Assembly: GCA_003666485.1 (NCBI GenBank)
Contig: CP032931.1
Location: forward strand, 1,798,001-1,862,000
Origin: Levilactobacillus brevis
GTDB lineage: Bacteria > Bacillota > Bacilli > Lactobacillales > Lactobacillaceae
Reading direction: 5' to 3'
Length of the DNA stretch: 64,000 nt
The notes beneath the pieces were generated by a model. That model saw only the letters and a program-made list of their open reading frames with translations, did no database searches and was not told where the DNA came from. Of the stretch, positions 5,300-62,250 are shown in pieces (within the stretch, counting starts at the first letter, position 1; each line of letters opens with the position of its first letter). Both the position numbers and the translations under genes were made by a program.

Positions 5300-6210
5300 A
5301 TGCAATTTGATGATTTACTGACAGAACAACGTAATCACCGGTCTACCCACATTGACCGGGAGTCTACTTTAGAGATGGTTGCGACAATCAACCGGGAGGA
5401 TCACCGAGTCGCACGCGCCGTGCAAAAGCAATTGCCCCAAATTGCCGCGGCCATTGATGCGGCCTATCCGCTGTTTGACCAGGGCGGCCGGCTGATCTAC
5501 GTCGGGGCCGGCACTTCTGGTCGACTGGGCGTCATTGATGCCACGGAGCTACAACCGACCTATGGCTTGAGCGGCGAGCAGACGTTTGGGCTGATTGCCG
5601 GGGGTGAAGCGCACTGACGCACACGGTCAAGGCGGCAGAGGATTCCGTTGAAATGGCCCAGGCCGATATGGCAGGCGTTGACTTGACCGACAAGGATATC
5701 GTTATCGCCAGCGCGGCTTCGGGCCAAACGGCGTATACGCTGGCAGCGCTACGGTTCGCGCAGGATCATGGTGCGGTGGGCATTGGCTTTTCGTGTATCG
5801 AAGGGAGTCCCTTGGCAGAGCTGGCGGATTACCCGATCACGCCGGTCGTGGGCCCCGAGATCATCACGGGAGCCACGCTGTTGAAGGCGGGGACTGCCGA
5901 GAAGATGGTCTTAAACATGCTGTCGACGGGCATCATGATCAAGACGGGCAAGGTCTATCAAAACCTGATGATCAACGTGGTGCCAACCAACGATAAGACG
6001 TTTGAACGGGCCAAGAAGATCATCGCTGAAGCGACCCAAACGTCAACGCTGGCTGCGGAACGGGCCCTGGAACGCTCCGACAACAATGTGCCATTGGCCA
6101 TCGTATTGATTGAGACCAAGGGCACCATCGCCGAGGCCAAGGCGTTGCTCGCGGCCACGGGCGGCCACGTGTCGCAAGCGGTCAAGCTGAGCGATACCAA
6201 GGTGAAATAA
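5300..6210 (+). pseudogene. murQ: N-acetylmuramic acid 6-phosphate etherase, frameshifted
   Basis: MurQ cleaves the lactyl ether of MurNAc-6-phosphate to give GlcNAc-6-phosphate and D-lactate in cell-wall recycling. The reading frame opens normally (ATG with GGAG/GGAGG before it) through the sugar-isomerase motif GAGTSGRLGVIDATELQPT. It then hits TGA at 5615. The family sequence resumes in the -1 frame from about 5611 (ALTHTVKAAEDS, then SAASGQTAYTLAAL) and runs to the stop at 6210. A single missing base between about 5608 and 5614 accounts for this, and restoring it gives about 303 residues, the normal MurQ length. It could also be a sequencing error or programmed slippage, but there is no strong slippery heptamer at the break. 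Confidence 0.85.
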
Positions 6211-6549
6211 GACACTAGCGTTGCCAGAATGCCTCCGTCAGCCAGTGGCTTCACCTGTCGTGGGTGTCCACTGCGGGGTGGGGGTTTCATCCTTTAAAAT
6301 GTTAATATGACCGATGAGGGTGTAGTCAAGACTGTTGTGACAGCAGGGGCTACGCTCTTTTTGTCTAGCTCTGAAGATGCTCGGTGCTGGTGGTATGACG
6401 TATTCAGCCGAGTTTGGACTAACCCGTCAGCAGCTAGTGTGGGAGCGCATGATTTTTTGATATGTAGTTAAGGATGTCATAAGCGCTGATACAGTAGTGT
6501 TGGGTGATGTGCTTCTACGTTGCTGTGAACCATCTCCCGTAGCCGAGAG
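6211..6549. other. Gap after murQ without a recognisable gene
   Basis: No supported gene here. A loose stem near 6314-6357 (GAGGGTGTAG opposite CTACGCTC, then TTTTTG) could end murQ transcription. The segment CTGTTGTGACAGCAG is reminiscent of the GTTGTCACAGCA motif inside the intergenic repeats, suggesting decayed repeat sequence. Confidence 0.35.
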
Positions 6550-6656
6550 TTCGCCAAATATGGGTTCAGCCGAGGTGTCGAGACCGCACTTTGGCTCGAC
6601 CCGTCCGCCCACAGCGACACGACCCATATTTGGCGAACGGTAAGGCGGCCAGCAAG
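6536..6656 (+). repeat. Intergenic repeat copy A (hairpin module only)
   Basis: It starts with CCGTAGCCGAGAGTT and ends with ATTTGGCGAACGG-TAAGGCGGCCAGCAAGGAC, the same right end as the copies near 13.07, 20.70 and 52.06 kb. It forms a hairpin with a perfect 16-base stem: TTCGCCAAATATGGGT at 6550-6565 pairs with its complement at 6622-6637. An inner stem of GTCGAG with CTCGAC lies in the loop. No long middle section is attached. Confidence 0.8.
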
Positions 6657-12556: not shown

Positions 12557-12577
12557 CTAAAGGTTGCAGGAAAACTA

Positions 12578-13104
12578 GTCTTTGAACGTCAGGTGGTCTG
12601 TGCTGGCCGCCTACCGTCCGCCAAATGTGTGATTGCTAATCGACAACTGGTTTGACCCTTTGTGTCTCTGATCTTACGGTTGGTTTTGGATTAATCCATG
12701 GTTTAGTACTGGTAAGCACTCATCCACTGGAGTCAACCAGCATTCAGCTGTAAATTGGGGTAAAACGCTCAGCAAACATTGTTGTCACAGCAGTCTTCAT
12801 CTCGGATGGCCTTCGATTATGTCTGTGATCGACTAATAGCGTTAGTAGGAACATCGCTGGAATAGCAACGCTTATCTACATTAGTGGGTCATCTGCCACG
12901 TAGCCGAGAGTGAGCTAAATTTGGACTCAGCCGTGGGAGTTTGCAAGTGGTCTGCTTGGAAACTGGCGTCTTCGAGACGTGACTTTCGGCTCGAAGCGAG
13001 GTTGAAGACCGCCCTTTGGCTTCGACCGGTCCTTCCCACAGCGTCACGGTCCAAATTTGGCGAACGGCAAGGCGGCCAGCATGGACTACCTGGCGTTCAA
13101 GGAC
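12578..13104 (+). repeat. Intergenic composite repeat copy B (full length)
   Basis: A 527-base noncoding element with imperfect terminal inverted repeats of about 50 bases. The left end reads GTCTTTGAACGTCAGG..CTGGCCGCCTACCG..GCCAAAT. The right end, complemented, reads GTCCTTGAACGCCAGG..CTGGCCGCCTTGCCG..GCCAAAT. The middle (about 12627-12890) is shared with copy E and partly with copy D. The last 200 bases are the hairpin module (AAATTTGGAC near 12917 opposite its complement near 13050, with an inner CGTCT-TCG-AGACG stem). Open frames inside are not conserved between copies. Confidence 0.8.
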
Positions 13105-13265
13105 TTGCCGTTTATCACTGGAACCAAGAGTAACGCGTCAGAACCCACAATGATTTCCCCAAATACGAAAAATCAGCAAAAAAATCGGGAAAGGTGTCGG
13201 GATAATCTAGTAAGTTGGTTAAATTATTGGTATATTGGGGGTAAAGATACTGGAGGCGGTTTTTA

Positions 13266-17212: not shown

Positions 17213-18451
17213 CTAGGCAATCAGCTGGTAGACGCGTGTGAACATATTGGCCTGATTGGATAAGCCATAACAAGCACGTTTGAGCTCCTTGATCTTACGG
17301 TTGATGCCCTCTATCGGTCCGTTAGAGTAGGACGATTTGGCGGCGTTAATTACTCCATTAAGATTCTTTCGTAGGGTATGCATGGCCGTATCTAGGTGCG
17401 TGCCGTTAGGCTGATAGTTAGTGATGATATTCTTGAGTTCATCAGCGTGACGCCCCATCAAAGCATCGTGGAGATCGATGTAGGTTTCATAAGCTGTTTT
17501 GAAGGCCGGAAACGCATCGGTTCCAATATCAATAGCGTTCTGTTCGGTCAAGTACTCATTCAGGCCGAAGAGGTAGCGGCTCTTTTGTGCGTCAGGGTTG
17601 GCCTTGTGGAATAGGCGCCATAGTGATTTCAGTACTTTATATTCCCGCGAATGCTTGTCGAGTTGCTTTAAACATTGAGTGCGAATGGTATCCATCGTCC
17701 GGCCCATTAATTGAATAATGTGGAACCGATCAATAATGAGTTCGGCGTTAGGGAATAGTTCGTGCACGAATGCCTGATAGGAGGCGTTCATGTCCATGAT
17801 GACGCGTTGAACCGCGGTCCGTTCTGCGGTGCTGTACTGACTAAGAAAGAACTGTTTGATGGTTCTATTAAGGCGGTCGCTAAGTACTTTAACTGATTTG
17901 TGAGTGTCGGCGTCAATGCAAATAAACGACATGGAGCCGTGCGTGGAACGGAATTCATCAAAGCATAGATTAATCGGTAACCGGCGGCTCGCGTGTGGAT
18001 GAATATTAGCCGTCAAAATACGCTGAACTGAGTTTGTCGAAATACCGGTGAGACTGGCGATAGTCTTAGCCGGGAGTGATTTACTGGCTAGCTTCAGCAC
18101 ATGAGTCGCTAGTCCGTGACCGATGGCGTGGTTGGTTGATACCACTGGAGTGGTGGCCGTACAAGTGCTATGGCAGTTACTACAACGCCAGCGTTGCTTG
18201 TTTAGCTCTAGAATTACGGGCCGGTCCATGGGTCCTGCAATGTGGACATGAGTGAGCTTGTGTCCGTTAGGGTGCAACGTATTGTATCCACAGCTGGGAC
18301 AGCGCCTGAGTGTGTAGGTAAGCTCTGCCTGGATGACCAAATACTTTTTGCGACCCGAGCCCCGACCATGAAATTCCTCACGAGTACCGAACACCTGAAT
18401 GTTTGTGTCTGTAATTCCCAGTAATTTAAGTGTATTATCCAGTTGAGACAT
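17213..18451 (-). CDS. ISL3-family transposase
   Basis: DDE-type transposase of 412 residues, complete. The N-terminal zinc-binding motif is [13 protein letters not shown] with [11 protein letters not shown] (about residues 35-95). A helix-turn-helix region ([21 protein letters not shown]) leads to the DDE domain. The domain shows [32 protein letters not shown] and the C-terminal glutamate motif [17 protein letters not shown], as in the ISL3/transposase_12 family. An AGGAATAG ribosome site precedes the ATG. No frameshift or stop, so the element may be active. Confidence 0.93.
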
Positions 18452-51571: not shown

Positions 51572-52081
51572 GTAATACCCAGCTGACAGGGACTCTGGAT
51601 ATTGAATCAGTCCACGCTACCACCTGCGGCTGTCAAAGATTTCGGTAGCTGTGGGGAACGTCAGCGGCCTGAGAATCGGTCCGCCGGCTCGGTTTGAAGC
51701 CTGACCAATCCCGTCAGTCTCCAAACGCGTCCCACGCTGTAAGCTGAGAAAACCGCTCAGCTAACACCGTTGTCACAGCAACCTACACCTTTGACTGCCT
51801 CCGGTTACGTCAGTGATTATCCACGAAGTTAGCAGGAGCATCGCTGGAATGGTAACATTCATCTACATTAGTGGATAGTCCGCCAGGTAGCCGTGAGTGA
51901 GCTAAATTTGGACTCAGCCGTGGGCGTTTTCAAGTGACCTGCTTGGAAACTGGCGTCTTCGAGACGTGATTTTCGGCTCGAAGCGAGGGTGAAGACCGCT
52001 CTTTGGCTTCGACCGGTCCTTCCCACAGCGTCACGGTCCAAATTTGGCGAACGGTAAGGCGGCCAGTACGGACTATCTGGT
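51572..52081 (+). repeat. Intergenic composite repeat copy D
   Basis: Two parts. 51572-51634 matches the left half of copy C. From 51737 (CTGTAAGCTGAG) to the right end at about 52081 it follows the middle section and hairpin module of copies B and E. Shared blocks include GTTGTCACAGCA, ATCGCTGGAAT and CATCTACATTAGTGG, then the module with GGAAACTGGCGTCTTCGAGA and the ATTTGGCGAACGG..GGCGGCCAG end. The inverted left terminus of B and E is missing. Nothing else is visible in this 735-base gap except the terminator at its end. Confidence 0.75.
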
Positions 52082-61688: not shown

Positions 61689-62250
61689 GTCCTTGAATGT
61701 AAGGTGGTCCGTCCTGGCCGCCTACCGTCCGCCAAATATGGGTCGGAACGCAGTGGGCGGACGGGGCGAGCCGAAGGGCGGTCTCGACACCTCGTCTTTG
61801 AGCCGAAGGTCACGTCTCAAAGTCGCCAGTTTCCTAAGCGGCATGAATCGCGCCGCTAAAGAAACTCCCACGGCTGAACCCACATTTGGCGAACTCTCGG
61901 CTACGTGTGTGATTGCTAATCGACAACTAGTTTGACTCTTTGTGTCTCTAATCTTACGATTGGTTTTGGACTAACTCATGACTTAGTGTTGGCAAGCATT
62001 AATCCGCTGGAGTCAGCCAGCATTCAGCTGTAAGCTGAGGAAAAACGCTCAGCCAATAGTGTTGTCACAGCAGTCTTCGTCTCTGACGGCCTTCGGTTAT
62101 GTCTGTGGTCGACTTAGCGTTAATAGGGGCAACATTAGTGGCTGATCTGCCACGTAGCCGTGAGTGAGCTAAATTTGGCTTCGACCGGTCCTGCCCACAG
62201 CGTCACGGTTCAAATTTGGCAAAAGTAAGGCGACTAGCACGGACTACCTT
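61689..62250. repeat. Intergenic composite repeat copy E with two hairpin modules
   Basis: The left end (GTCCTTGAATGTAAGG..CTGGCCGCCTACCG) and right end (complement GTAGTCCGTGCTAGTCGCC) are inverted, as in copy B. Unlike B it contains a complete second hairpin module in reverse orientation (61714-61904), including GCCAAATATGGGT opposite ACCCACATTTGGC. A middle section like B's (from about 61906) comes next. A shortened forward module (about 62150-62230) lacks most of the inner hairpin. Nothing coding is conserved; the rest of this 715-base gap is terminator. Confidence 0.75.

What the first reader, a model, noticed from the sequence alone, without database searches (positions are those of the whole stretch)
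12578..13104. A long composite intergenic repeat family with ~50-base terminal inverted repeats
The sequence shows five gaps (about 6.54-6.66, 12.58-13.10, 20.59-20.70, 51.57-52.08 and 61.69-62.25 kb) ending in the same core, ATTTGGCGAACGG plus GGCGGCCAG. Copies B and E also share an inverted left end and, together with D, several hundred bases of middle sequence. The full form is about 530 bases and noncoding. Five copies in 64 kb imply many per genome. It could be a non-autonomous transposable element (MITE-like) mobilised by an unseen transposase, or a structured RNA family. Both are inference; I do not know a described family that matches.
Basis: partly seen in the sequence, partly recalled or inferred. 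Interest (0 to 1): 0.7.

Follow-up and report, generated by a model that had tools for sequence, protein, structure and literature searches.

The report
Mobile doublets of folded intergenic repeats
The odd gaps belong to a very abundant family of small mobile DNA elements in Levilactobacillus, most of them built as a back-to-back pair of about 190-base modules whose branched fold has been kept while the letters changed, which resembles known bacterial repeat elements in layout but not in size or shape.

Summary
The unit is a 183-192 nt branched module, M. I analysed 189 distinct flanked copies in this 3.1 Mb genome. Its covariance model hits 33 of 35 genomes of the genus, 4 of 24 others in the family, 0 of 39 others in the order. 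There is no Rfam match. Covariation is strong: 25 of 55 pairs change on both sides within the genome, 52 of 55 across relatives. Wobble pairs and energies favour one strand. M sits in inverted doublets, 5' ends facing: 135 of 189 copies have an inverted partner on the 5' side; 2 inverted hits lie on the 3' side. A recent subfamily has 14-bp terminal inverted repeats, CTAAAGGTTGCAAG, with 8-bp target duplications in 6 distinct copies (4 exact, 2 with one mismatch; 0-1 at shifted offsets). Two sites beside uvrC differ in occupancy between species. Best reading: a non-autonomous, MITE-like element with a REPIN-like doublet layout and unusually large folded modules. No mobilising enzyme was found.

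The parts
12557..12563 (+). Left end of copy B's element: CTAAAGG, start of the 14-bp end sequence CTAAAGGTTGCAAG (B reads CTAAAGGTTGCAGG)
   Evidence: letters. The matching right end of copy B is missing.
12602..12666 (-).
   Evidence: 16.5 bits, E 0.04; profile positions 154-183, E 0.0014; 36-nt inverted repeat
12900..13080 (+). Module M (subfamily M1) of copy B: branched structure with three hairpins on a long basal stem
   Evidence: (163 bits), fold (z -2.76), covariation
13081..13105 (+). Start of the right arm of copy B, truncated
6539..6653 (+). Copy A: module with an internal deletion
   Evidence: 90 bits
20574..20706 (+). Copy C: 3' fragment of a module joined to left-arm sequence
   Evidence: 18 bits
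51616..51808 (-). Copy D: left, inverted partner module (diverged type MB)
   Evidence: 44.4 bits; MB alignment and model
51887..52067 (+). Copy D: right module M1; with 51616-51808 it forms an inverted doublet
   Evidence: 157 bits; site lacks the module in 9 of 10 other Levilactobacillus records
61713..61904 (-). Copy E: left, inverted module of subfamily M2, full length
   Evidence: 221 bits
62154..62238 (+). Copy E: remnant of the right module
   Evidence: 37.5 bits

Best explanation
The gaps are copies, mostly decayed, of a non-autonomous transposable element. The intact unit reads: end - arm - module (inverted) - spacer - module - arm - end, with the 5' ends of the two branched modules facing each other and their 3' ends outward. 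SHOWN: high copy number, doublet geometry, conserved fold acting on one strand, noncoding content, and, in one subfamily, 14-bp terminal inverted repeats and 8-bp target duplications; different occupancy of two sites between species. INFERRED: a transposase of the cut-and-splice (DDE) kind, supplied in trans by an element not found here, acts at the CTAAAGG ends and makes the 8-bp duplications. INFERRED, less certain: the modules are kept folded because their single-stranded form, most likely RNA, is needed for the element's own spread or for making insertions tolerable; selection then acts on the copies that spread, not on a host function of each copy.
For: Copy number: 95 matching pieces for copy B (40 of 259 candidates scored), 150 of 150 scored candidates with the model at E 1.5e-35 or better (1278 candidates, cap 150), 189 distinct flanked copies in fetched sequence. 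Covariation: within the genome 25 of 55 pairs with two-sided changes, shuffles 11.3; across relatives 52 of 55, shuffles 38, unchanged at 52 of 55 after dropping 5 antisense rows. Slid controls score 0.02-0.09 against 0.22 and 0.53. Strand: G-T 54 against A-C 10 cells, consensus energy -70 against -48, sense strand more stable in 40 of 43. Doublets: 135 of 189, 17 of 19 neighbouring pairs within 900 bp are minus-plus, 23 of 31 copies in relatives. Ends and duplications: TAAAATAA (L212), TGAGTTGA (L009), TTAAATAA (L030), TTAAACAA (L011) exact; L018 and L021 with one mismatch; 6 at the true offset against 0-1 at 12 other offsets, 113 candidate pairs. Gene context: 58 same-strand and 55 opposite-strand tandem placements, 56 convergent, 14 divergent, 1 inside a long ORF, of 183. 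Occupancy.
Against: No enzyme was found. The ISL3 and IS256 elements of this genome have different ends, IS1595 is absent, and exact CTAAAGGTTGCAAG ends form no inverted pair longer than about 615 bp in the genome. Only 7 copies show a duplication with at most 2 mismatches, from a search that allowed 4 mismatches in each end. A scan around 194 copies without a preset end sequence found only two, L212 and L011, against 0-3 at shifted offsets, so it does not stand above noise on its own. The element at 2666931-2667304 has exact ends but no duplication within 2 mismatches. Nothing here shows transcription; no promoter-like site was found in copy B and shuffles gave 0.6. The strand preference shrinks across relatives (G-T 90 against A-C 40).
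Confidence: 0.64

Rival explanations
1. A REPIN-like element moved as single-stranded DNA by a HUH (Y1) transposase. The folded strand would be the DNA strand that the enzyme binds, and the GTAG at the module's 5' foot would be the guide tag.
For: Inverted doublets with GTAG at the inner ends (GTAG starts 35 of 43 modules; geometry) match the layout reported for GTAG REPs, where HH dimers prevail (PMC3733652, passages seen), and for REPINs (PMC3116915, passages seen). One-strand structure fits single-stranded DNA. Five Y1_Tnp genes are present. A weak leading-strand excess exists for the M2 type, 88 to 62.
Against: 8-bp target duplications and terminal inverted repeats are not expected of that chemistry (my knowledge). 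The three of five Y1_Tnp loci that I fetched carry no module within 1.5 kb. The recent subfamily M1 shows no strand bias with respect to replication (20 to 19). Modules are about 183-192 nt and branched, not 20-40 nt hairpins.
Confidence: 0.14
2. An ordinary MITE that derives from a decayed insertion sequence; the fold is a by-product of inverted repeats and has no role.
For: MITEs commonly lie in intergenic space, carry terminal repeats and have transcripts that fold stably (PMC10969869, passages seen; it cites QMITE2 with 7-9 bp repeats). Terminal repeats and duplications are present here.
Against: Two-sided compensatory changes in 25 and 52 of 55 pairs, far above shuffled and slid controls, need selection on the fold; hairpins alone would not keep unpaired letters such as TTCAGCCG and GAGACG nearly invariant.
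Confidence: 0.12
3. A host-serving structured RNA family (for example a regulator or 3' end element) that happens to be multi-copy.
For: Strong one-strand covariation; wide presence in the genus.
Against: No orientation preference relative to neighbouring genes in tandem spacers (58 to 55), depletion between divergent genes (14 of 183), species differences in occupancy, hundreds of decayed fragments. No promoter-like or tailed terminator-like site in copy B's module.
Confidence: 0.07

Closest known systems
REPINs and GTAG-tagged REP dimers (Bertels and Rainey 2011, PMC3116915; PMC3733652; passages seen)
   Same: Inverted doublets of a foldable unit, one prevailing geometry, intergenic, high copy number, GTAG tag at the unit's 5' foot, variable spacer
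   Different: Unit is 183-192 nt with three hairpins instead of 20-40 nt; 14-bp terminal repeats and 8-bp target duplications in one subfamily; no linked RAYT gene seen at the three Y1 loci examined; the GTAG paper's passages list Proteobacteria, Cyanobacteria, Chloroflexi and the PVC group, and the word firmicutes does not occur in it
MITEs such as QMITE2 of Coxiella (7-9 bp direct repeats, 23-29 bp terminal repeats; PMC10969869, passages seen)
   Same: Non-coding, terminal inverted repeats, target duplications, intergenic, stable fold
   Different: Two large covarying branched modules; autonomous partner unknown; 390-749 bp
bcr1 repeats of Bacillus cereus (PMC6542083, passages seen)
   Same: Genus-limited, chromosomal, up to 130 copies, mobile-like
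   Different: bcr repeats are 100-400 bp and linked to a TTTAT motif; no sequence comparison with bcr1 was made here
BOX elements of Streptococcus pneumoniae (review passages in PMC10969869)
   Same: Modular, intergenic, structured, multi-copy
   Different: Not compared by sequence; the doublet geometry and 8-bp duplications are features of this family, recalled as absent from BOX

Membership tests
MITE (non-autonomous DNA transposon) | Terminal inverted repeats | tested here: met
   CTAAAGGTTGCAAG at both ends, exact in L212 and L011; 0-2 mismatches per end in the 7 listed copies. Met for this subfamily only.
MITE (non-autonomous DNA transposon) | Target site duplications | tested here: met
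   6 distinct copies with at most one mismatch in 8 bp, 0-1 at other offsets. A scan without a preset end gave only 2, not above its shifted controls.
MITE (non-autonomous DNA transposon) | No transposase gene inside | tested here: met
   Only ORFs of 86 aa or less overlap copy B and 88 aa or less overlap L011
MITE (non-autonomous DNA transposon) | An autonomous element with the same ends | tested here: inconclusive
   ISL3 and IS256 ends differ, IS1595 absent, no long pair of exact ends in the genome. Other IS families not tested.
REPIN / GTAG REP | Inverted doublet of the repeat unit | tested here: met
   135 of 189 copies; 17 of 19 neighbouring pairs
REPIN / GTAG REP | GTAG at one end of the unit | tested here: met
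   35 of 43 modules start with GTAG
REPIN / GTAG REP | Short (20-40 bp) single hairpin unit | tested here: not met
   183-192 nt, three hairpins on a basal stem
REPIN / GTAG REP | Linked RAYT (Y1) transposase gene flanked by the repeat | tested here: inconclusive
   5 Y1_Tnp genes in the genome; 3 were fetched with 1.5 kb flanks and none carries a module
Known Rfam RNA family | Match at the gathering score | tested here: not met
   0 matches in the 64-kb window; best relaxed hit in copy B is 16.8 bits against a cut-off of 36

The most novel reading that the evidence does not exclude
A bacterial mobile element whose spread depends on a large branched RNA (or single-stranded DNA) domain at each end: two outward-reading modules, each on the strand that carries the 3' end of the element, recognised as folded single strands by the mobilising machinery. 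This would be a transposition system with structured-nucleic-acid end modules that is neither IS200/IS605-like nor an ordinary DDE MITE.
Probability: 0.25. Interest if true: 0.85.

Novelty: new variant of a known kind. Interest (0 to 1): 0.62.

Why it matters
One genus of food bacteria carries well over a hundred copies per genome (in the genome studied) of a folded element with textbook covariation that Rfam does not list. It joins two kinds of evidence rarely seen together: selection on a single-stranded fold, and terminal repeats with target duplications. That makes a clear question testable: why would a DNA transposon need a branched single-stranded structure at each end? It also supplies species and strain markers and explains many unusually long intergenic gaps in these genomes.

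Tried and rejected
Rfam at gathering and relaxed thresholds: nothing. Plasmid and phage collections: no match for copy B, nor in plasmids for the 615-bp element L011 or for the M2 locus L058. Exact 23-mer of the M1 core in genome contigs: 0, which says only that this exact string is absent there; the tool may leave out very near records. Replication-strand bias as a sign of single-stranded DNA transposition: weak for M2 (88 to 62, p about 0.03-0.04) and none for M1. Target duplications around the older M2 copies: none found beyond noise. Promoter or terminator role inside copy B: no promoter-like site, one terminator-like site outside the module, at the shuffled level. Whole doublet as one long hairpin: rejected, since partners are diverged and each folds on its own. 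Literature: nine searches returned no paper that I recognised, from listings, as describing this family; six papers were opened in part. The library is open-access only, so a prior description elsewhere is possible.

Rows dropped: modules shorter than 120 profile positions or under 60 bits before the context and doublet counts, copies within 500 bp of a fetched end, identical cores counted once. One search includes 5 antisense rows; one search repeats it without them. The A2 alignment was fitted to the model and so leans towards it; A1 was made with MAFFT, but the structure counted on it was predicted from it.

Full report
What was claimed.

Check. The repeats are there. In the window's genome (G000, 3,096,874 bases; the window is C1:1798001-1862000) copy B finds 95 matching pieces at E 0.001 or better, with 40 of 259 candidates scored. 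The related left module of copy E finds 40, all that were scored of 293 candidates. A covariance model of the module scores 150 of 150 examined candidates at E 1.5e-35 or better (1278 candidates, capped at 150, so this is a floor). A short hairpin pattern gives 170 places and 0 in its control. In the sequence I fetched there are 183-194 distinct long modules, depending on the flank required.

The unit. The module M is 183-192 nt. Forty-three copies from this genome align over 206 columns. The consensus fold has a long basal stem, an internal loop with the conserved letters TTCAGCCG, and three hairpins. Pair by pair, 25 of 55 pairs have two-sided changes against 11.3 in shuffles, and 98.4% of cells pair; slid partners give 32-45%. 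In 65 hits from relatives, 52 of 55 pairs have two-sided changes against 38.1 in shuffles, covariation score 0.525 against 0.155. Five of those rows are antisense shadows of other rows; without them it is 52 of 55 with 707 two-sided cells against 197 in shuffles. In one subfamily the basal stem is almost wholly different in letters and still pairs (L072 and L028). Among columns whose commonest pair is Watson-Crick, G-T cells outnumber A-C cells 54 to 10 on the sense strand; the consensus energy is -70 on the sense and -48 on the antisense strand; 40 of 43 copies fold better in the sense. Across relatives the ratio is 90 to 40. So the selected molecule is single-stranded and of one polarity: RNA, or single-stranded DNA.

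Subfamilies. M1 (window B and D; AAATTTGGAC in the stem) is 92-98% identical in most of its full copies, so it amplified recently; M2 (window E; AAATATGGG) is older and more numerous; a third type occurs at L028 and L072. A further module, MB, has the same overall shape with a different basal stem; 22 examples from this genome and relatives align and give a consensus structure with 59 pairs.

The doublet. M rarely stands alone. Of 189 distinct copies with 500-bp flanks, 135 have an inverted M or MB on the 5' side within 450 bp (median gap 121). Hits by position and orientation are 174 on the 5' side and inverted, 14 on the 5' side and direct, 14 on the 3' side and direct, 2 on the 3' side and inverted. 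In the best model hits, 17 of 19 neighbouring pairs within 900 bp are minus-plus. In one locus per relative, 23 of 31 copies have the same partner. The 5' ends, which begin with GTAG in 35 of 43, face each other; the 3' ends GGCGGCCAG face out.

Ends. Outside the modules lie arms that end in CTAAAGGTTGCAAG and its complement. Searching for such pairs 150-1800 bp apart and comparing the 8 bases outside gave four exact duplications (TAAAATAA, TGAGTTGA, TTAAATAA, TTAAACAA), two with one mismatch and one with two; at offset 0 there are 6 of 113 candidate pairs with at most one mismatch and at 12 other offsets 0 or 1. The seven elements measure 390-749 bp. Against this, a scan around 194 copies without a preset end sequence found only two of them, and its shifted controls gave 0-3, and one element with exact ends (2666931-2667304) has no duplication. 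So the duplication is well supported for the recent subfamily and undetected for old copies. The exact 14-mer occurs 21 times in this genome and 7 times in the other 34 of the genus together.

Place in the genome. With a simple ORF caller, 183 modules lie between genes as follows: tandem with M in the same sense 58, tandem in the opposite sense 55, convergent 56, divergent 14; one lies inside a long ORF. There is no preferred sense relative to genes and an avoidance of promoter regions. With the skew switch near 2.0 Mb, M2 copies are 88 leading to 62 lagging and M1 copies 20 to 19 at a boundary of 2.05 Mb.

Distribution. DNA search with the B core: 24 of 35 genomes of the genus (own included), 0 of 23 from other families of the order. 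With the model: 33 of 35 of the genus, 4 of 24 others of the family, 0 of 39 others of the order (stricter filters, 26 candidates scored per genome). The genus is Levilactobacillus: the window's UvrC is 99% identical to that of L. suantsaiihabitans.

Occupied and empty sites. Between ysxC and uvrC (copy D) the window has 689 bases where L. suantsaiihabitans has 68. Of 10 other Levilactobacillus records, 9 have no module hit there and L. andaensis has a weak one. Just after uvrC the window has about 155 bases and no module, L. suantsaiihabitans has a 189-base module (192 bits) in a 653-base gap, and L. andaensis and L. mulengensis have weak hits. The suantsaiihabitans insertion has ends CTGAAGG...CCTTCAG; its flanks agree over only 6-7 bases, so its duplication is unclear. 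These are species differences and do not by themselves show precise excision or insertion.

Mechanism. The ends and duplications point to a transposase acting in trans on the CTAAAGG ends; this is inferred. The doublet with each sense strand running outward, on the strand whose 3' end is at the element's end, is symmetrical about the element, as expected if both ends must present the same folded module. Whether the fold serves transposition, protects the host from the insertion, or acts as an RNA is open. I favour a role for the single strand in the element's own spread, because placement relative to genes is random in sense and yet the fold is kept.

Comparison. It works like a REPIN in layout and like a MITE at its ends. 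It is not filed as a REPIN: the short single-hairpin unit was tested and not met. It meets the tested MITE features in the recent subfamily; the autonomous partner is missing. Papers were seen as listings or passages only: PMC3733652, PMC3116915, PMC10969869, PMC2267715, PMC6542083 (passages), PMC2229807 (outline and abstract). Nine library searches listed no description of this family that I recognised.

Noticed in passing
window 17213-18451: Transposase ORF of an ISL3-family element; the genome search lists 11 ISL3-type places, and 7 other-or-same copies compared are 99.9-100% identical over 1553 bp. Its ends begin GGGTCT, unrelated to the repeat family.
   Followed up: partly
G000, 20 places listed: Two IS256-type elements in high copy number (about 1343 and 1352 bp by the shared stretch of six copies each), with ends unlike CTAAAGG.
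   Followed up: partly
window 5300-6210: The ORF at 5653-6207 matches only the C-terminal part of MurQ (profile positions 127-304 of 307), with a separate ORF just before it at 5300-5617: the gene looks split or frameshifted. The upstream ORF was not searched.
   Followed up: no
L011 1730-1790 region, spacer between the two modules: The spacer of the recent elements holds its own palindrome, CAGTGATTTTCCTGCAAATTTTGCAGGTAATCACTG, seen by eye.
   Followed up: no
L213 (G000:C1:1356000-1375500): Cluster of modules: nine hits above 140 bits within 19.5 kb.
   Followed up: no
L225 about 6200-6500 (L. cerevisiae, after uvrC): A different insertion of some 200-300 bases with its own long inverted repeat (GTGTGCCAGTAGGCG...CGCCTACTGGCGCACA), not an M hit.
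   Followed up: no
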